From the NCBI RefSeq assembly GCF_037076565.1, contig NZ_AP029028.1, positions 372,001 through 436,000 of the forward strand: 64,000 nucleotides of DNA, in the 5' to 3' direction. The notes beneath the pieces were generated by a model that ran no database searches, had not been told where the DNA came from, and saw nothing but the letters and a program-made list of their open reading frames with translations. Source of the DNA: Herbaspirillum sp. DW155 (GTDB lineage: Bacteria; Pseudomonadota; Gammaproteobacteria; Burkholderiales; Burkholderiaceae_D). Of the stretch, positions 7,098 through 14,251 are shown piece after piece (the stretch's first letter is position 1; each line of letters starts with the position of its first letter). A program made the position numbers and the translations under genes.

Positions 7098-7355
7098 ATG
7101 CAAGCTCCGTTCATCCATCAGGAGCACTACAAGGGCTTTCACATTTCGCTGCGCTGTAGCGGCGTGCGTGATCTGTGGGAGGTCAGCGAGGTGCACATTG
7201 CCCACGGCAGCGGGCTGGTGCCACCGCTGTTTCCACGCCGGCATTTGCCGGGCCGTTCCGCCAGCGCTGTGCTCGCCGTCGAGCGCGGGATGGCTTGGGC
7301 CAGGGCGGTGATCGATAATCTTGATCCGGCGCTGGATGAGGATTGGCTGGCATGA
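7098..7355 (+). CDS. small hypothetical protein
   Basis: 85 aa, not recognised. The start is taken at ATG 7098, preceded by a purine-rich GAAAGAAAAAGAA; an in-frame TTG at 7080 is an alternative. The protein is soluble, rich in His and Trp in its first half (HQEHYKGFHISL, LWEVSEVHI), and ends acidic (DPALDEDWLA). No signal peptide or membrane segment is seen. It follows infA in the same direction and could share its transcript. Confidence 0.6.
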   Translation: MQAPFIHQEHYKGFHISLRCSGVRDLWEVSEVHIAHGSGLVPPLFPRRHLPGRSASAVLAVERGMAWARAVIDNLDPALDEDWLA

Positions 7356-7408
7356 GGCCGGCCTGTGCCAGCCCTGCCGTCCCCGGTCGTGATCCTTCCT
7401 GGGGCAGC

Positions 7409-7771
7409 CTAGCGGCTGCGCCCGCTATCAGCCGCCTTGATCAGGCATTGCGATACCTTGGCCAGATGTTGCTGGGCTGCCTCGGTCAGGTTGATCTGCT
7501 TGCGCCTGCCGTCTTCGGTCTCGGACAGGGCAATCCATCCTTTTGCCACCAGTGACTTCAGTCGCAGGTGAACGGTCACCGGCGAGCCCAGCGAGGCATC
7601 GCCGGTCACATCGGTCACCGACAAGCTGGCATCGGTATGCAGTGCCCTGGTGATATGGTCGAAGACCTTCTTTTCCAGCGGCTCCAGCGAGGGCAGGTCG
7701 CGAATCGATTCGATGAGTTCGAGAAAACGCACGTAGATATCCATGTGCCGTTTTCGCTTGTTAGCACCCAT
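7409..7771 (-). CDS. winged-helix (MarR-like) transcriptional regulator
   Basis: 120 aa. A helical N-terminus is followed by a winged-helix core in the middle: SVTDVTGDASLGSPVTVHLRLKSL looks like the recognition region, and GWIALSETEDGRRKQINLT looks like the wing. This places it with short MarR-type regulators. The start at 7771 has AGGG seven bases upstream. It is divergent from the membrane-protein gene at 7855 with only 83 bp between starts, so it may control that promoter. Its ligand is unknown. Confidence 0.7.
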   Translation of the reverse strand: MGANKRKRHMDIYVRFLELIESIRDLPSLEPLEKKVFDHITRALHTDASLSVTDVTGDASLGSPVTVHLRLKSLVAKGWIALSETEDGRRKQINLTEAAQQHLAKVSQCLIKAADSGRSR

Positions 7772-7854
7772 AATGATCCCTCTGCAGATAGAGCGTGTAT
7801 TCTACCGCTCCACTACCGCTGCAGCATCCATATCAAGGGGTGATCTTTCAGGTC

Positions 7855-8433
7855 ATGAATACCACAAGCTTTCGTAGCTTCGGTCTAGGCGTAATGTTGT
7901 CGGCATTCCTGTTCCTCACCGCGCTGCTGGCCAATGAGCTCATCTTTCCCGGTCTGGCCTTCATTACCGGAGTCAACTGGATCTACCTGCCGGCCGGCAT
8001 CAGGCTGCTTTGCACGCTGCTCTTTGCCGAAGCCGGCGCGGTCGGCTTGTTCATCGCATCCTGGTTGGCGTGTTTCCTGTATTTCTTTCCCGACGATCTC
8101 ATCCGCTCGGTCGCCGGCGCGGTGATTGCGGCATTGGCTCCCTATCTTTCCTATCTTTTCGTGGAGCGCCGATACGGACTGGCCACTTCCCTCAAGGGTT
8201 TGTCCGGCTTGCGTCTGCTCACTGCCGCCGTACTCTATGCCTTTGCCGGCAGCAGCCTGCACCACTTCTGGTTCTGGCTGAGCCGGGACGGACATGCCTC
8301 GCCGGAGAGCTGGTGCGTCATGTTCATTGGCGACCTGAGCGGCACCCTCATCGTCCTCTATTTCTGTCGATTGCTGATCGCCTTGTTCAGGCGCGTCCCG
8401 GGGGCTGAGCGCGGCCGTCCGAAAGGCTATTGA
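7855..8433 (+). CDS. multi-pass membrane protein, MASE1-like
   Basis: 192 aa with about five to six hydrophobic segments and no catalytic domain. The pattern, including the WIYLPAGIRLL stretch after the first membrane segment, recalls the MASE1-type integral membrane sensor region seen at the N-terminus of many diguanylate cyclases and kinases. Here it stands alone. The ATG at 7855 is preferred because it directly precedes the first hydrophobic helix; an in-frame upstream extension to 7795 overlaps the divergent promoter region. Function unknown. Confidence 0.65.
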   Translation: MNTTSFRSFGLGVMLSAFLFLTALLANELIFPGLAFITGVNWIYLPAGIRLLCTLLFAEAGAVGLFIASWLACFLYFFPDDLIRSVAGAVIAALAPYLSYLFVERRYGLATSLKGLSGLRLLTAAVLYAFAGSSLHHFWFWLSRDGHASPESWCVMFIGDLSGTLIVLYFCRLLIALFRRVPGAERGRPKGY

Positions 8434-8928
8434 TCCATCGCTTTGCGAGCATGTGCGAAAAGTTTTGTTGATCGCGGTCAAATTCCCTTAATTTAGATAT
8501 AGAATTTAAATGTATTATCTAAATAAGATATTGCTGCGGGAAAATTCAAGACCTCCTCTGGGAAGGAGGTTCCTGCGTTTTCTTGTTTTGCTTGGTGTTT
8601 GCTGATGATTGATTAGCGATTACGTTTAAGTTACGCAATGTTGTTGGCAAACATGATGCGCAGTGGTAATGTACCGAAAAATTTTCAGAGTCGGGGGCAG
8701 CAGGGCAGCAGGGGATGTGTCCGTGCAGGACTTCAACCACCGCAGGGAGTGCGGTGACGCCGCGATCCATTTGGGGTGGAGTGCGGCATGAGCAGTACAT
8801 GAAGCCGTGCCGGTGGCGCAGTGCCGTCCTCCATCCATTCATGGATCCTTGGCGATAACACGTCGTTCAGTCCGGATTTCGGAGGAGCGATTTCAACCAC
8901 TGGGGGGTGGGTGATTTACTTCAGATAT
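8434..8928. other. 495-bp intergenic region upstream of the CsgG-like cluster
   Basis: No convincing gene. It contains an AT-rich block (about 8485-8535) that contrasts with the surrounding GC-rich DNA and probably holds promoter elements. A 7-bp hairpin with ACCTCCT/AGGAGGT arms (8551-8570) is followed by T-rich sequence, a weak terminator candidate. A GC-rich stretch at 8690-8850 carries short repeats (TTCAACCAC twice, GAGTGCGG twice). Confidence 0.5.
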
Positions 8929-10098
8929 ATGCTGCAGCGACTTGGGGTCTTGCTGCTGGTGTCCATGATTTCGTCCTTCGCGGGAGCGCAACAGCCACTG
9001 GACGTGGCCTTTGCCGGGTTTGCCTATGCTGGCGGCGAGAGCACCATGAAGGCGCGTTTCCCTTATTCACTCCGCTATGAAGCTGCGCAGCAGAGCGGCG
9101 GCAAGACTGTCTACCAGTCCCTGATGCAGCAGTTGCAGACCAATCCACCGACGCACTTGCGCATCACCACCCAGCTCGATGAGCTCAAGGGGCGCGATCA
9201 GGCATTGGCCGTGGCGCTGGTCGTGGGTAATGAGACCGTTTCCGATGAGGCCTTCGGCAACGTGCACAAGCTGATGGTGGTCATTCGCGCGCAAGTGATG
9301 TTCTTCGACTTCAAGTCGATGAACGTGGTGCGCTCGTATCCGCTCAGTTTCGCTTATGTCGATGTCCTGGATCATGCCGCCAGCGAGAATGAAATCATGG
9401 CGCGCGTCAGGATGGTCTACGAAGGGACCGGCGACAAGCCCGGCATCCTGGCACGCTTCGTCAACAGTGTGGCCAAGGCGCAGATCCCGGCGCAGGTCAC
9501 GCGATACCTGCAGGTGGTCAATGTGCGCGTGAGTCCCGAGGCGCAGGCGATGATTCCCGCTTCGCTCCGCTCCGAGCCGGGGGCGGTCGAGACCTGGGCT
9601 GCCGACCTGGTGGGGGAAGCCATTTCCACCCGTGCAGGCGTGCCCATCGTGCCGTATTCCAAGGGCTATGCGATCGGCAACGTGATGTCTTTGCGCGTCT
9701 CCGATGGGGCCGTATGGCAGCTCAAGCTGCCCAGGCCCGACTACGAAATCAGCGTCGACCTGAGCAACTTCAAGAAGATCAAATTCAGCGAAGTGGCGGG
9801 TGGCGCCACCACCTACGTCTATGGCGCCTATGGTGCGATCCGCATCGTGGAGCCCCTGGGCAACAAGGTCTATCTCGACACGACCCTGAAGAATGGCGAG
9901 ACCCGCATCATCCCGGCCAGCCAGCAATACGTGGACGACTTCTCGCATTTCTATGATGCCCTCAACGGCATGTTCGTCAAGCTGGCGCAGGTCATCGATG
10001 GCACCGGCGACGACAAGTGGATCAAGAGTGCGGCCGCCGCCCCCGCCATCGAGCAGCAGATTGTGCAAACCAAGGAGTTGATGAAGTCATGCAAGTAA
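8929..10098 (+). CDS. exported hypothetical protein, first gene of the CsgG-like cluster
   Basis: 389 aa, no family recognised. A Sec signal peptide (residues 1-20, ending FAGAQQ) indicates export. The mature protein is beta-rich with no cysteine until the very C-terminus (KSCK), where a single Cys sits next to last. The ATG at 8929 directly precedes the signal sequence; the in-frame sequence from 8821 is not signal-like. The stop overlaps the next gene by 10 bases, indicating coupled translation. Context suggests a periplasmic or surface role alongside the CsgG-like lipoprotein at 12066-13763. Confidence 0.8.
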   Translation: MLQRLGVLLLVSMISSFAGAQQPLDVAFAGFAYAGGESTMKARFPYSLRYEAAQQSGGKTVYQSLMQQLQTNPPTHLRITTQLDELKGRDQALAVALVVGNETVSDEAFGNVHKLMVVIRAQVMFFDFKSMNVVRSYPLSFAYVDVLDHAASENEIMARVRMVYEGTGDKPGILARFVNSVAKAQIPAQVTRYLQVVNVRVSPEAQAMIPASLRSEPGAVETWAADLVGEAISTRAGVPIVPYSKGYAIGNVMSLRVSDGAVWQLKLPRPDYEISVDLSNFKKIKFSEVAGGATTYVYGAYGAIRIVEPLGNKVYLDTTLKNGETRIIPASQQYVDDFSHFYDALNGMFVKLAQVIDGTGDDKWIKSAAAAPAIEQQIVQTKELMKSCK

Positions 10099-11261
10099 TC
10101 CGAACCCTCATTGCGCTGATGCTGGCGATGTTGCTGCTGCCGGCCAGCGCCCAGATCCAGCAGGCACGCGGCCAGTATTCGATCAGTTACAAGGACGCGC
10201 TTGGCGTCTTCGACCGCAAGGAAGTCCCTGCACCGATCAAGCAGAAGGCCAGGCAGGAAGCGGCCCTCAAAGCAGTCGAAAGTTACTATGCTGAGGCAGG
10301 GCAATCGGAGTCGGCCAACTTTGATGCGATCCGCGCCAGGATTCTGGAGAACCAGGATCGCTACATCCTCGATACCACAGTGCTTTCCGAGACCGATGAT
10401 CCGAAGGAGTTGCGCTACACCGTCGCGGTGCGCGTCTCGCTGAACGTGGCCAACCTGCGCAATGCGGTGCAGGCATCCTCGGCTATCGGCAAGGCGGCAC
10501 AAGGCGAAAAGTCGGCCATGAGCTTCGTCTTCGTCTCGCGCCAGGTCGAATCGGCCAAGTCCTATGACGCCCGCGTCTACAAGCGCCAGGACAATTCGGC
10601 GCAAGTAGCAGGTTCGGCAGTGAGCAAGGATAGTTACAAGGAGTCCACCAGCGAAGGTGAGTCGGTGGGCAAGTCGCGTGTGAGCACCAGTGGCTCGGCC
10701 ACCCGCGAAACAGGTCAGAACGTGGACATGTCGGTCAAGACGACGGTGACCTCCGAAACCGGTGGCAGCACCACCCGCAAGGCGACCGAGACCACCTGGC
10801 GCGTGCTGCCCAGTGCCAACCTGAACCAGGTGTTCGTCTCCAAGTTTTCCGAAGCGGGCTATGACGTGATCGAGGCTGCCATGGTGGAGTCGGCTGTCTT
10901 CAAGATCGCCAACATCGAAGCGGACTACAAGTCCGGCAATGACCTGCAACCGCAGACACTGCGCGCCATTGCGGCAGGCATGAAGGAAAACCAGATTCCC
11001 TATATCGCCCTGGGCACGCTCGATGTCGGCTTGCCGGACAAGGATCCACAAACCGGCCTCATGCGCGTGGCCGTCACCGTCAATGCCAAGGTGTGGGATG
11101 TCACCAAGCCCATTCCTCGCACTCGCCTGGCAGTCGGTCCGGTCGCTTACGCCGGAGTAGGACCTACCGAAGATGAAGCGCGCGGCAATGCCCTCAAGGC
11201 CGCTGCCAGCAATGCCGCGCAAGAATTGTCCAGCCGCATGACCACCATGGGTCTGCGCTGA
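10089..11261 (+). CDS. exported FlgT/CsgG-like protein of unknown function
   Basis: 390 aa with a signal peptide (residues 1-22, ending LLPASAQ). Residues about 49-122 (PIKQKARQEAALKAVESYY ... LRYTVAVRVSLNVANL) resemble the N-terminal LPP20/FlgT_N-type domain. A Ser/Thr-rich low-complexity insert spans about 168-235. The C-terminal region about 236-385 looks like the TolB/CsgG-type alpha/beta fold. FlgT itself belongs to the flagellar H-ring, but no flagellar gene is nearby. The start overlaps the preceding stop. These domain calls come from pattern recognition only. Confidence 0.75.
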   Translation: MQVIRTLIALMLAMLLLPASAQIQQARGQYSISYKDALGVFDRKEVPAPIKQKARQEAALKAVESYYAEAGQSESANFDAIRARILENQDRYILDTTVLSETDDPKELRYTVAVRVSLNVANLRNAVQASSAIGKAAQGEKSAMSFVFVSRQVESAKSYDARVYKRQDNSAQVAGSAVSKDSYKESTSEGESVGKSRVSTSGSATRETGQNVDMSVKTTVTSETGGSTTRKATETTWRVLPSANLNQVFVSKFSEAGYDVIEAAMVESAVFKIANIEADYKSGNDLQPQTLRAIAAGMKENQIPYIALGTLDVGLPDKDPQTGLMRVAVTVNAKVWDVTKPIPRTRLAVGPVAYAGVGPTEDEARGNALKAAASNAAQELSSRMTTMGLR

Positions 11262-11281
11262 GCTTGCCGGTCTGGCGGGAT

Positions 11282-11317
11282 GACATCCATGCGCTGATGG
11301 CTTGACGCATGGATGTC
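11282..11317. repeat. 12-bp perfect inverted repeat in the CsgG-like cluster
   Basis: GACATCCATGCG (11282-11293) and its exact reverse complement (11306-11317) are separated by 12 bases, 21 bp after the second gene's stop. There is no T-run, so it is not a standard terminator. It could be an mRNA hairpin setting different levels for the upstream and downstream genes, or an operator. Confidence 0.75.
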
Positions 11318-11413
11318 GTTCACGCCCGGATGGCGTTCTGCTGTCCGTTTGTTTCCCCTCGTTCTCGATCCCGTTTGTTCATCCATCCCTTACCTCATCA
11401 AGGAAGAAAAACC

Positions 11414-12031
11414 ATGAAAAAAATCCTCGCCCTGGTCGCCATTTCCCTCGCCGTGACCCTCCCCATGACGGCTTCGGCTCAGTTGGGCAATCTGCTGGGC
11501 GGCAGCAAGCCCGCCTCCGGTGGCGCCGATCTGTCCGGCCTGCAGACCCAGCTGGTGCGCAACTACGCCGCCGCCGGCCAGGACGTCGTGACGGCCAATA
11601 GCCACATCGGCGATGCGCTGGGCATCAAGCTGCAATCCATTGATGCCTCGGCTACCTCCGATTCCCTGTCGGCCAGCGAACTCGAAGCCAAGGACAAGGC
11701 CATCAGCGCCAATGCCCAGTCGGTCTCGGATGCGCTCAAGAAGGGCGCCACCCTGAAGGATGGCGAATCCAAGAAGAAATTCGCACAGGGCCTCCTGTCC
11801 CTGGCGCTCGGTCTGAAGAAGTACATTGGCCTGCGCAATGATGCCCAGAGCTTCGCCAATGGCCTCACCAGCGCATCGCCGCTGCAACTGCCCGGCCTGC
11901 AGGCCGGTGCCTATGTGGCCAAGACACTGCCCTCCAACGTGTCCGCGCTGACCGACGTGCTCAAGAACGCGGTGGACTTCGCCAAGAGCAATGGCGTGTC
12001 CGTGCCGGCTGACGCGACCAGTGTGCTCTGA
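11414..12031 (+). CDS. exported helical hypothetical protein, third gene of the cluster
   Basis: 205 aa, family not recognised. A clear signal peptide (residues 1-22, ending TASAQ) is followed by a Gly/Ser-rich linker and a predicted all-helical body rich in Ala, Ser, Leu and Lys, with no cysteines. The ATG at 11414 follows GGAAGAAAAACC. It lies between the FlgT/CsgG-like gene and the lipoprotein gene (34 bp to the latter), so it is probably a partner or cargo in the same system. That role is inferred from position only. Confidence 0.78.
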   Translation: MKKILALVAISLAVTLPMTASAQLGNLLGGSKPASGGADLSGLQTQLVRNYAAAGQDVVTANSHIGDALGIKLQSIDASATSDSLSASELEAKDKAISANAQSVSDALKKGATLKDGESKKKFAQGLLSLALGLKKYIGLRNDAQSFANGLTSASPLQLPGLQAGAYVAKTLPSNVSALTDVLKNAVDFAKSNGVSVPADATSVL

Positions 12032-12065
12032 TTCCCGATGATCGCATCCGACAAGAGAGTTTGAT

Positions 12066-13763
12066 ATGCAGCGACGAATTGGAGTAGGTGTTATTGCGTT
12101 GACGATGGCTCTGCTGTCGGGGTGCGATAAAAAGGAAGAACCGAAGAAAGTGGCCGAGCCCGTCGCGGCCGCACCGGAGCAGCCCAAGCGTAGCGCGCCT
12201 GACTTTGGTGGTGTCACCAAGGTCAGCCGCGAGGCCGAGGCCGTGGGCAGTACCCTGGAACTGGCCGTGGTCTCTGCCTTGCAGTCGGCGGTGGCGCAGG
12301 TCAATGGCGTGAAGGTTGCCAGTCAGTTGCAGGGCTTGCGGCAGGGGCTCGACGTCAGTGTCGATGGCCAGAATGCTGGCTCGGTGCGGGCTGATGCCTT
12401 CGTGCAGAAGATGGTGGCCGGGTCCCAGGGGACGGTGCTGGGTTACGAGATTCTGTCCCAGGAAGAGGTGGATAAGGTCGATGAAGAGGTGGTGGCGAAG
12501 GTGCGTGCCAGCGATGGCGGCTACAGCTACTCGGCATCGGCCTCGTCCGAAAGCAATATGAAGGTCAAGGCCAGCGGTGAAGGCAGTGCCCGTGGTGGTG
12601 ACGCGAGCGCCAGTGCCTCGGCGTCCTATTCCGGTTCGGCTGCTTCCAGCGAATCGGCTAACGTCGACGTCAAGCGCGGTGCCAGTTCCTATTCATCCGA
12701 CCTGAGCCACAAGAAGATGCGCAGCTACTGGAAGGTCAAGCTGCGCGCCGAGATCGCCCAGTACAAGGCGCCCGATGAAAAGGGGCAGCCGAAGATCGTG
12801 GTGGTCTTGCCCAAGACCCTGATGCAGACCTATCCGGTGGGCGACAGCCAGGTGCCGGCCGACGAGGTGGCACGCGCGGTGCGTGGGCGCCTGTCGGACA
12901 TCCTCACGCAGACCAAGCGTTTCATTGTGCTGGATCGTGAATTCGGTGCAGACCTGCAAGCCGAGATCGATCACATCAACAGTGGCAACGTGCGTGCACA
13001 GGACAGTGCGCGCATCGGCCAGCAGCTGGCCACGGATCTGTTGCTGATTCCGACCATCGAGCGTTTCGAATATCCCAAGTCGGTACGCAAGCTGCGCATG
13101 TCTGATCGCGAACTGGTGTCTTACTCGGGCGGCGGGCGCATCACGCTGCGGCTGGTCAATGCGGCGACCGGTCAGGTCGTGATGTCGCAGAGCTTCGAGC
13201 AGAAGCTGGCCAGTGCCGATCCGAGCACCATGCCACGCGTGATCGATGGCAAGAGCATGGCGGCGGGGTTGATGGATTCGCTGGCCGGCCAGATCGGCGG
13301 AGCCATCGTCACCGAGATTTTCCCGGTGTCGGTGGTGTCGCTCGATGGTGATCAGGTGGTGTTGAGCCAGGGTGGCGAATCACTACAGGTGGGCCAGCGC
13401 TGGAAGGCGGTCTATCTGGGTGAGGAGCTCAAGGATCCGCAGACCGGCAATTCGCTGGGCCGCAAGGAGACGCCGGTCGGCACGATTCGCATTGACCGCG
13501 TTGCCGCGCAGACCTCGTATGGCACCGTGGAGGCGGGTGTCAAGCTGGCTGACAAGCCCTTCGTGGCCGGCGCCATCGAGTTGCGTGGGCAACTGCCCAA
13601 GGCTGCGGCGGTAGAGGCCGGTGCAGCGGAGGGCAAGGCGGAGACCACGTCGGCTGCTGGTGCCGCGGCAGCTGCACCGGCCAAGGCCAAGAGCGCCAGA
13701 CCTGCAGCGGCAGCCACTGAAGCGCCCAAGGCCAGCGCACCGGCCAAGGATGACAATTGGTAA
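12066..13763 (+). CDS. CsgG/FlgT-like outer-membrane lipoprotein
   Basis: 565 aa. A lipoprotein signal with lipobox LLSGC (Cys20) is followed by charged residues. Residues about 153-212 form a Ser/Ala/Gly-rich low-complexity stretch. Residues about 243-418 resemble the CsgG/HfaB secretion-channel family (VVVLPKTL ... RLSDILTQTKRFIVLDRE ... RIGQQLATDLLLIPTIERFE). Residues about 419-508 resemble the C-terminal domain of FlgT (DPQTGNSLGRKETPVGTIRI). An Ala-rich tail of about 55 residues ends the protein. CsgG forms the outer-membrane curli export channel, but no CsgA/B/E/F genes are present, so the exported cargo is unknown. Confidence 0.8.
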   Translation: MQRRIGVGVIALTMALLSGCDKKEEPKKVAEPVAAAPEQPKRSAPDFGGVTKVSREAEAVGSTLELAVVSALQSAVAQVNGVKVASQLQGLRQGLDVSVDGQNAGSVRADAFVQKMVAGSQGTVLGYEILSQEEVDKVDEEVVAKVRASDGGYSYSASASSESNMKVKASGEGSARGGDASASASASYSGSAASSESANVDVKRGASSYSSDLSHKKMRSYWKVKLRAEIAQYKAPDEKGQPKIVVVLPKTLMQTYPVGDSQVPADEVARAVRGRLSDILTQTKRFIVLDREFGADLQAEIDHINSGNVRAQDSARIGQQLATDLLLIPTIERFEYPKSVRKLRMSDRELVSYSGGGRITLRLVNAATGQVVMSQSFEQKLASADPSTMPRVIDGKSMAAGLMDSLAGQIGGAIVTEIFPVSVVSLDGDQVVLSQGGESLQVGQRWKAVYLGEELKDPQTGNSLGRKETPVGTIRIDRVAAQTSYGTVEAGVKLADKPFVAGAIELRGQLPKAAAVEAGAAEGKAETTSAAGAAAAAPAKAKSARPAAAATEAPKASAPAKDDNW

Positions 13764-13892
13764 GTCGTTGAAGATGGTCCGGTGCGTCATGGGCGCATCG
13801 GGCCACGGTTGTCGGCATGATGCCGCGCGACTGTAAATAATTTAGCTTTTCCAGTAGCAACAAGCGGGTCCGTTTTCACGGACATCAAGCTG

Positions 13893-14114
13893 TTAGCGTC
13901 CGTGATTACGGGCTACCGGGTGAGTTCGCTGAGATCGGATGTAGCGGCGAAGTGTGTTGCGGGCAATTTTCCCAATGGAGATGCGGTCTCTGATGTACCA
14001 GCGTCGAATAGTTCCAAATAGCGCCACAACAGACATAGCAGTTGGCCGACCCTGTATTGCGATGTTGGTAAGTGCAAAGAGGTTGTTAAAGCCGATTTGC
14101 CACTGATTTGCCAC
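13893..14114 (-). pseudogene. remnant of an IS21-like transposase (IstA N-terminus)
   Basis: A 73-codon minus-strand frame contains FGTIRRWYIRDRISIGKIARNTLRRYIRS, which matches the N-terminal helix-turn-helix of IS21-family IstA. The usual residues between IAR and NT (RTGLS-like) are missing, and the frame stops soon after, so it is a decayed fragment. No IstB or terminal repeats are seen. It lies in the 411-bp gap between the CsgG-like lipoprotein gene and tRNA-Pro, which otherwise holds only small hairpins. Confidence 0.5.
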
Positions 14115-14130
14115 TAATACTCCACAAAGA

Positions 14131-14161
14131 AAAACAGCGAGTTGAATAACTCGCTGTTTTT
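14131..14161. terminator. bidirectional terminator downstream of tRNA-Pro
   Basis: A 13-bp perfect stem (AAAACAGCGAGTT and its complement) with a GAAT loop and A/T tracts on both sides. It sits 14 bases beyond the 3' end of the minus-strand tRNA gene. Confidence 0.85.
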
Positions 14162-14174
14162 ACTTGGATAATTC

Positions 14175-14251
14175 TGGTCGGGGTGAGAGGATTCGAACCT
14201 CCGGCCTCTACGTCCCGAACGTAGCGCTCTACCAGGCTAAGCTACACCCCG
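14175..14251 (-). tRNA. tRNA-Pro(CGG)
   Basis: A 77-nt cloverleaf on the minus strand. The 7-bp acceptor stem is CGGGGTG/CACCCCG, and the anticodon loop TTCGGGA gives anticodon CGG (Pro, codon CCG). The T-arm contains GGTTCGAATCC, and CCA is encoded (complement of TGG at 14175-14177). The gene is transcribed toward the terminator at 14131-14161. Confidence 0.97.

What the first reader, a model, noticed from the sequence alone, without database searches (positions are those of the whole stretch)
8929..13763. Four-gene exported cluster with CsgG/FlgT-like folds and no known cargo
Seen: four consecutive genes all encode exported proteins, one a lipoprotein. The first two overlap by 10 bp and the last two are 34 bp apart. 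The fourth combines a CsgG/HfaB-like region with a FlgT C-terminal-like domain, and the second has a FlgT_N-like region plus a TolB/CsgG-like fold. Known: CsgG exports curli, HfaB anchors the holdfast, and FlgT forms the flagellar H-ring. Neither curli, holdfast nor flagellar genes are next to this cluster. Inference: it may be an undescribed outer-membrane secretion or envelope ring complex, with the third, small helical protein as a cargo or periplasmic partner.
Basis: partly seen in the sequence, partly recalled or inferred. Interest (0 to 1): 0.72.

Follow-up and report, generated by a model that had tools for sequence, protein, structure and literature searches.

The report
Undescribed FlgT-like outer-membrane gene set
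Four neighbouring bacterial genes that are found together in many species probably build an unstudied protein assembly on the inner face of the outer membrane, from parts related to a ring around the flagellum but apparently used without flagella.

Summary
Four exported proteins A-B-C-D (window 8911-13763, +; Herbaspirillum-type genome) form a conserved cassette. In a 399-genome sample of the order, B is strong in 7 genomes; A is in the same 7 and strongly in no other; C is in 6 of the 7 plus 2 others. Order A-B-C-D holds in 17 of 20 loci scanned.

D is a lipoprotein over Pfam's CsgG cut-off. By profile it matches FlgT through N, M and C domains; its modelled middle domain is nearest CT253 and FlgT, with PelC and CsgG lower and tied. 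B is modelled as FlgT N plus a TolB/FlgT_M-like domain. A and C have no convincing Pfam match.

Best reading: a flagellum-independent, FlgT-type assembly at the outer membrane; the ring is inferred from fold class. A CsgG-style pore is not supported, though not excluded: one cluster's D lacks the first hairpin segment. C as cargo is weakened by solitary homologues. Curlin repeats: 0 of 15 cluster genomes; FlgH absent in 3 of 15. Nine literature searches gave no description.

The parts
8911..10098 (+). Gene A: exported protein, 395 aa from GTG 8911 (389 aa from ATG 8929); no known family; conserved Cys near the C-terminus (here C-K at the end)
   Evidence: no convincing Pfam/NCBIfam family; Cys invariant in 18 of 18 aligned rows
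10089..11261 (+). Gene B: exported protein, 390 aa; FlgT_N-like domain followed by a TolB_N/FlgT_M-like domain
10089..10098 (+). 10-bp overlap of the A stop and the B start (ATGCAAGTAA); translational coupling inferred
   Evidence: 10 bp in 18 of 20 junctions examined, 4 bp in L021, none in L043
10155..10445 (+). B residues 23-119, FlgT_N-like domain (strand, helices, two strands)
10566..10784 (+). B residues 160-232, Ser/Thr/Gly-rich low-confidence loop; mostly missing in the L041 homologue
11414..12031 (+). Gene C: small exported protein, 205 aa, no known family; homologues also occur without A and B
12066..13763 (+). Gene D: lipoprotein, 565 aa, FlgT-like N-M-C architecture that also scores as Pfam CsgG
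12114..12125 (+). Lipobox L-S-G-C of D (residues 17-20)
   Evidence: sequence; lipobox by eye in 15 of 17 homologues
12483..12719 (+). D residues 140-218, region with a Ser/Ala/Gly-rich insert in the N domain, present only in some D homologues
12783..13319 (+). D residues 240-418, CsgG/FlgT_M/PelC-type domain
13323..13595 (+). D residues 420-510, FlgT_C-like domain with a DPxTGxxLG motif
   Evidence: (weak TsaP match, E 0.11)
13605..13760 (+). D residues 514-565, low-confidence tail of variable length ending in a conserved Trp (here DDNW)
   Evidence: 16 of 17 homologues end in W; pLDDT under 50

Best explanation
A-B-C-D encode one cell-envelope assembly that works like a FlgT/PelC-type scaffold and is not tied to the flagellum. 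Shown: the four genes travel together; D is a predicted lipoprotein with a FlgT N-M-C profile match; B is predicted to have FlgT N-M architecture. Inferred: D is anchored in the inner leaflet of the outer membrane and, like several members of this fold class (FlgT H-ring, PelC 12-mer, CsgG ring), assembles a periplasmic collar; B co-assembles with D; A and C are periplasmic partners; D's tail with its terminal Trp docks on another partner. It is a scaffold, not itself a pore. What it encloses or anchors is unknown.
Against: No oligomer or pairwise complex was modelled; A and C have no fold assignment. The D model is middling (mean pLDDT 61.6, 206 residues under 50), as is B (70.8). The TolB_N/FlgT_M fold also occurs in proteins not known as rings (TolB, LpoB, PqiC, GNA1162 among the matches), so a ring does not follow from the fold. 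Structure comparison of D covers mainly residues 238-482; its N domain rests on the profile match alone. The FlgT-like profile has only 3 rows, one without the N domain. Asp at +2 of the mature N-terminus (window, L012, L013, L023, L038) is an inner-membrane retention signal in E. coli (recalled); most other homologues have Gly. FlgH is present in 12 of 15 cluster genomes, and of the 3 without it two carry divergent forms of the cluster (G100, G102).
Confidence: 0.48

Rival explanations
1. CsgG-like secretion channel: D oligomers form an outer-membrane barrel and export an unknown product, with C as cargo or chaperone.
For: D passes the Pfam CsgG cut-off; CsgG is matched in 10 of 11 homologues at a permissive threshold; hhalign to E. 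coli CsgG 52%, E 1.4e-4; CsgG ties with PelC among the structural matches of D. In the window's D model the strands 325-342 and 349-365 are long, so a first hairpin like CsgG's is possible there.
Against: FlgT matches D better than CsgG. In L041's D the segment aligned with CsgG's first membrane hairpin is missing, and the second connection is short in the 7 D rows aligned (hairpin positions in CsgG recalled). Curlin repeats in 0 of 15 cluster genomes. C homologues occur without A and B. No constant neighbour that looks like a cargo was seen by eye.
Confidence: 0.17
2. LpoB/TolB-like regulator: a lipoprotein complex that reaches through the peptidoglycan to control a synthase, hydrolase or the Tol system, without a ring.
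For: 6 of 11 D homologues match LpoB at the permissive threshold (best E 0.0017); the Caballeronia D' matches TolB_N 4.4e-4 and LpoB 8.1e-4, both under the cut-off; B's best structural match is TolB; a C homologue without the cluster lies beside a lytic-transglycosylase-like gene (L076, by eye); one distant cluster carries SH3 and M48 peptidase genes.
Against: The window's D has no LpoB match. D's FlgT match includes a C domain that LpoB and TolB lack (recalled). No constant peptidoglycan gene beside the cluster was seen by eye.
Confidence: 0.22
3. Accessory collar for a known machine (flagellum, type IV pilus, type II secretion) encoded elsewhere in the genome.
For: FlgT-like architecture; FlgH is present in 12 of 15 cluster genomes; some cluster-free relatives have pilB/C/D-like genes near the same tRNA-Pro (by eye).
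Against: 3 of 15 cluster genomes lack FlgH (G294 with the usual cassette, G100 and G102 with divergent ones). No D match in 28 of 34 same-genus genomes, some incomplete, so it is not needed for common machines. No constant machine gene next to the cluster was seen by eye. Pili and secretins were not searched for.
Confidence: 0.1

Closest known systems
FlgT (flagellar H-ring protein; PF16548, PF16539, PF16538)
   Same: D matches FlgT across N, M and C by profile and by M-domain structure; B matches N plus M by model
   Different: D is a lipoprotein, does not reach FlgT Pfam models and scores as CsgG; no flagellar genes nearby by eye; occurs in 3 of 15 genomes without FlgH
CsgG (curli export channel; PF03783)
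   Same: D passes the Pfam cut-off; lipoprotein; same core fold
   Different: FlgT_N-like and FlgT_C-like parts in addition; no curlin repeats in 15 cluster genomes (CsgE and CsgF not searched); first hairpin segment missing in L041's D
PelC (dodecameric outer-membrane lipoprotein ring of Pel export)
   Same: Core domain of D superposes at 2.2-2.3 A over 125-126 residues
   Different: The PelC chains matched are 139-158 residues and sit below a PelB barrel (PMC12141448, passages read); no PelB-like gene was noticed by eye here, none was searched for
CsgG-DUF4810-GNA1162 three-lipoprotein operon
   Same: related folds in one operon, one of them CsgG; a set of this look is in the same genome (DUF4810 and GNA1162 named by eye)
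   Different: other partners; no counterpart of A or C noticed there
CsgG plus FlgT_C proteins (e.g. L053, L055, L057)
   Same: M and C domains of D (99.7%, E 3.6e-27)
   Different: the profile match does not include an FlgT_N domain; their gene neighbourhoods were not examined

Membership tests
FlgT | N-M-C three-domain architecture | tested here: met
   D vs FlgT-like profile A10 over all three regions, 98.7%, E 1.5e-16; A10 holds 3 sequences, one without the N domain
FlgT | passes Pfam FlgT_N, FlgT_M and FlgT_C cut-offs | tested here: not met
   window D matches only CsgG and a sub-threshold DUF6812; FlgT_M in 2 of 11 homologues, best E 0.0014; no FlgT_C in G000 at E<=1
FlgT | encoded with flgO/flgP or other flagellar genes, in flagellated bacteria | tested here: not met
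   no flagellar neighbours seen by eye; FlgH absent from 3 of 15 cluster genomes
CsgG | Pfam CsgG above the curated cut-off | tested here: met
   35.3 bits vs 20.8
CsgG | two membrane beta-hairpins forming the export barrel | tested here: inconclusive
   first hairpin segment missing in L041's D, second connection short in 7 D rows aligned; but the window's D keeps a segment at the first place, with long strands in the model
CsgG | curlin repeats in the genome | tested here: not met
   0 of 15 cluster genomes; CsgE and CsgF not searched
PelC / ring-forming outer-membrane lipoprotein | ring-shaped oligomer | not testable with these tools
   single-chain predictions only
LpoB | Pfam LpoB above cut-off | tested here: not met
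   window D has no LpoB match; 6 of 11 homologues at permissive E, best 0.0017; D' of L049 19.7 bits vs cut-off 22.3
TolB | TolB_N fold plus beta-propeller | tested here: inconclusive
HfaB holdfast anchor | CsgG-like lipoprotein with HfaA/HfaD | not tested
   no HfaA/HfaD search was made
LPP20 | Pfam LPP20 match | tested here: inconclusive
   no LPP20 among the listed hmmscan matches of A-D homologues, which may miss distant members

The most novel reading that the evidence does not exclude
A new kind of outer-membrane-associated machine: two FlgT-architecture proteins (one a lipoprotein) build a hetero-oligomeric periplasmic ring with two protein families of unknown fold, independent of flagella and curli, and spread horizontally among proteobacteria as a self-contained cassette, with a second subtype that adds further exported proteins (E and F).
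Probability: 0.33. Interest if true: 0.78.

Novelty: new variant of a known kind. Interest (0 to 1): 0.6.

Why it matters
FlgT, CsgG, PelC and TolB share a core fold used at several outer-membrane machines. A conserved cassette with two FlgT-architecture proteins outside the flagellum would suggest that the H-ring module has been recruited for something else. It would also give two protein families (A, C) without present annotation a place to be studied. A deletion strain and a pull-down in a laboratory strain would test it directly.

Tried and rejected
Defence system: no PADLOC hit for A-D. Phage origin: no significant PHROGs hit, no match of B among 50,697 phage records. Curli: curlin repeats in 0 of 15 cluster genomes. 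Flagellar H-ring: FlgH missing in 3 of 15. B or A as sequence homologues of D: hhalign probability 7% and 1%; B vs FlgT by sequence 4%, so B's assignment rests on the model. Sequence searches of solved structures gave only weak hits. The weak B hit in G175 (E 3.7e-4) and the weak A hit in G316 (E 4.9e-4, interrupted frame) were not counted as clusters; G175 had no D match. Literature: nine searches, read as listings (one search showed 20 of 293), gave no paper on such a cluster; the library lacks most subscription journals. L050 (second C. metallidurans strain) was fetched but not analysed. The groups tested on the trees were chosen after the bit scores were seen; in the D tree L043 sits on a very long branch and is not placed reliably. 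Empty sites were read in 5 of the 11 genomes.
Full report
WHAT IS THERE. The window lies in a 5.47-Mb, one-contig genome whose named near relatives are Herbaspirillum (L012, L013). Genes A (8911-10098), B (10089-11261), C (11414-12031) and D (12066-13763) lie on the + strand. A and B overlap by 10 bp; C and D are 34 bp apart. A's start is more likely GTG 8911 than ATG 8929, since three near relatives keep the upstream residues and a G-rich stretch precedes it.

CONSERVATION. One scan of named genomes with B gave 6 loci, all 6 with A-B-C-D. In one search, 20 loci were scanned. In 17 the order and strand A-B-C-D is kept (L021's D is cut by the contig end). L022 is the other end of L021's cluster; L042 is rearranged; L047 is not a cluster. 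C. metallidurans CH34's megaplasmid adds one more A-B-C-D. In the order sample of 399 genomes (own included), B is strong in 7 (one further weak hit, G175). A is in the same 7 and strongly in no other (one weak hit, G316). The A profile already held the A proteins of all 7 (window included); the other 6 had been found beside B with a model lacking them (L042's A only at E 4e-6). So mainly shows that A was not found elsewhere. The same holds for C: it is in 6 of the 7, all 6 already in that profile, plus G118 and G321 alone. The 7 genomes are from 6 families. D was found in 9 of 10 genomes given, the miss being the weak-B genome G175 (profile without these genomes). In the phylum sample B was found in 6 of 398, three of them from one genus outside the order but in the same class. 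Among 34 same-genus genomes (own included) 6 have D. The A/B overlap is 10 bp in 18 of 20 junctions, 4 bp in L021, and L043 has a gap (L042 left out). Gene neighbours differ between genomes (by eye), so the cassette looks self-contained.

IS IT A PORE? The alignment of 7 D homologues with E. coli CsgG and FlgT shows that L041's D lacks the segment lying where CsgG's first membrane hairpin is (positions in CsgG recalled, not from a call). The connection where the second hairpin would be is short in the D rows. The window's own D keeps the first segment, and its model has long strands there. So a CsgG-type barrel is not a conserved property of the family, but the window's D alone does not exclude it.

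VARIANTS. In L043, D lacks a lipobox and A carries one. In G100 (L042) the locus reads SH3 - M48 peptidase - B - D - two small exported proteins - a 443-aa protein, possibly a long C - A. In Caballeronia pSBC2-3 (L049) it reads D' - E - F - A - B - C, with E and F resembling the two extra proteins of L042 by eye. This suggests a second subtype. D ends in Trp in 16 of 17 homologues, after a tail of variable length. Trees disagree about genus g181: with A and B, grouping g181 with the long-insert D carriers is rejected (p 0.020 and 0.028); with D this grouping is not rejected (p 0.64) and the opposite one nearly is (p 0.053). D may therefore have been exchanged between cassettes. The groups were named after the scores were seen.

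SITE. The cluster lies between an infA-like gene region and tRNA-Pro/ispB. Relatives G008 and G020 have matching flanks on both sides without the cluster; G008 has an acyltransferase-like gene there. In G005, G030 and, after one other long frame, G015, only the tRNA/ispB side matches and is followed by CorC-like and pilB/C/D-like genes (5 genomes, names by eye). The site looks like a variable spot.

MECHANISM. Best reading: an outer-membrane scaffold of FlgT type. FlgO, FlgP and FlgT form the Vibrio H-ring around the L-ring (PMC6375700, passages read), and PelC is a dodecameric lipoprotein ring on the periplasmic side of the PelB barrel (PMC12141448, passages read). D and B share that fold class. 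Ring formation, partner binding and outer-membrane location are inferences. Rivals are an LpoB/TolB-like regulator, a CsgG-like exporter, and an accessory collar for a machine encoded elsewhere.

NOVELTY. The domains of B and D are known; the combination, and the families A and C, have no convincing Pfam or NCBIfam match. Nine literature searches gave no description (listed under Tried and rejected). I rate it a new variant of a known kind, interest 0.6.

Noticed in passing
L075 9801-10736 (G321); L076 2178-2771 (G118): C homologues without A, B or D in the stretch read (L076 is only 3.3 kb): one solitary, one between a lytic-transglycosylase-like gene and a GspG-like pseudopilin gene (by eye). 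C is a wider family than the cluster.
   Followed up: partly
window 13605-13760 and homologues: D ends in Trp in 16 of 17 homologues, with an acidic residue two or three places before it, behind a tail of variable length; the E proteins of L042 and L049 end in acidic-Phe. Possibly a docking motif.
   Followed up: partly
L044-L046 (genus g181): D is 66% identical to the window's D while A, B and C are only 30-40% identical, as if D had been exchanged between cassettes.
   Followed up: partly
L042 5107-11552; L049 5280-10764: A second arrangement with extra exported proteins E and F (no convincing Pfam family); in L042 also SH3 and M48 peptidase genes.
   Followed up: partly
G000:C1 about 3873394-3875118 (L024 9394-11118): The genome's other CsgG protein sits in a three-lipoprotein set that looks like CsgG-DUF4810-GNA1162 (by eye).
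   Followed up: no
window 7346-14251: Region between an infA-like gene and tRNA-Pro is variable between relatives and looks like an insertion spot.
   Followed up: partly
window 12483-12719 and 10566-10784: Both D and B carry long Ser/Thr/Ala/Gly-rich inserts, each absent in some homologues; purpose unknown.
   Followed up: no
window 12126-12128: Asp directly after the lipid-bearing Cys of D in the window, L012, L013, L023 and L038, Gly in most others; this could change membrane sorting (sorting rule recalled).
   Followed up: no
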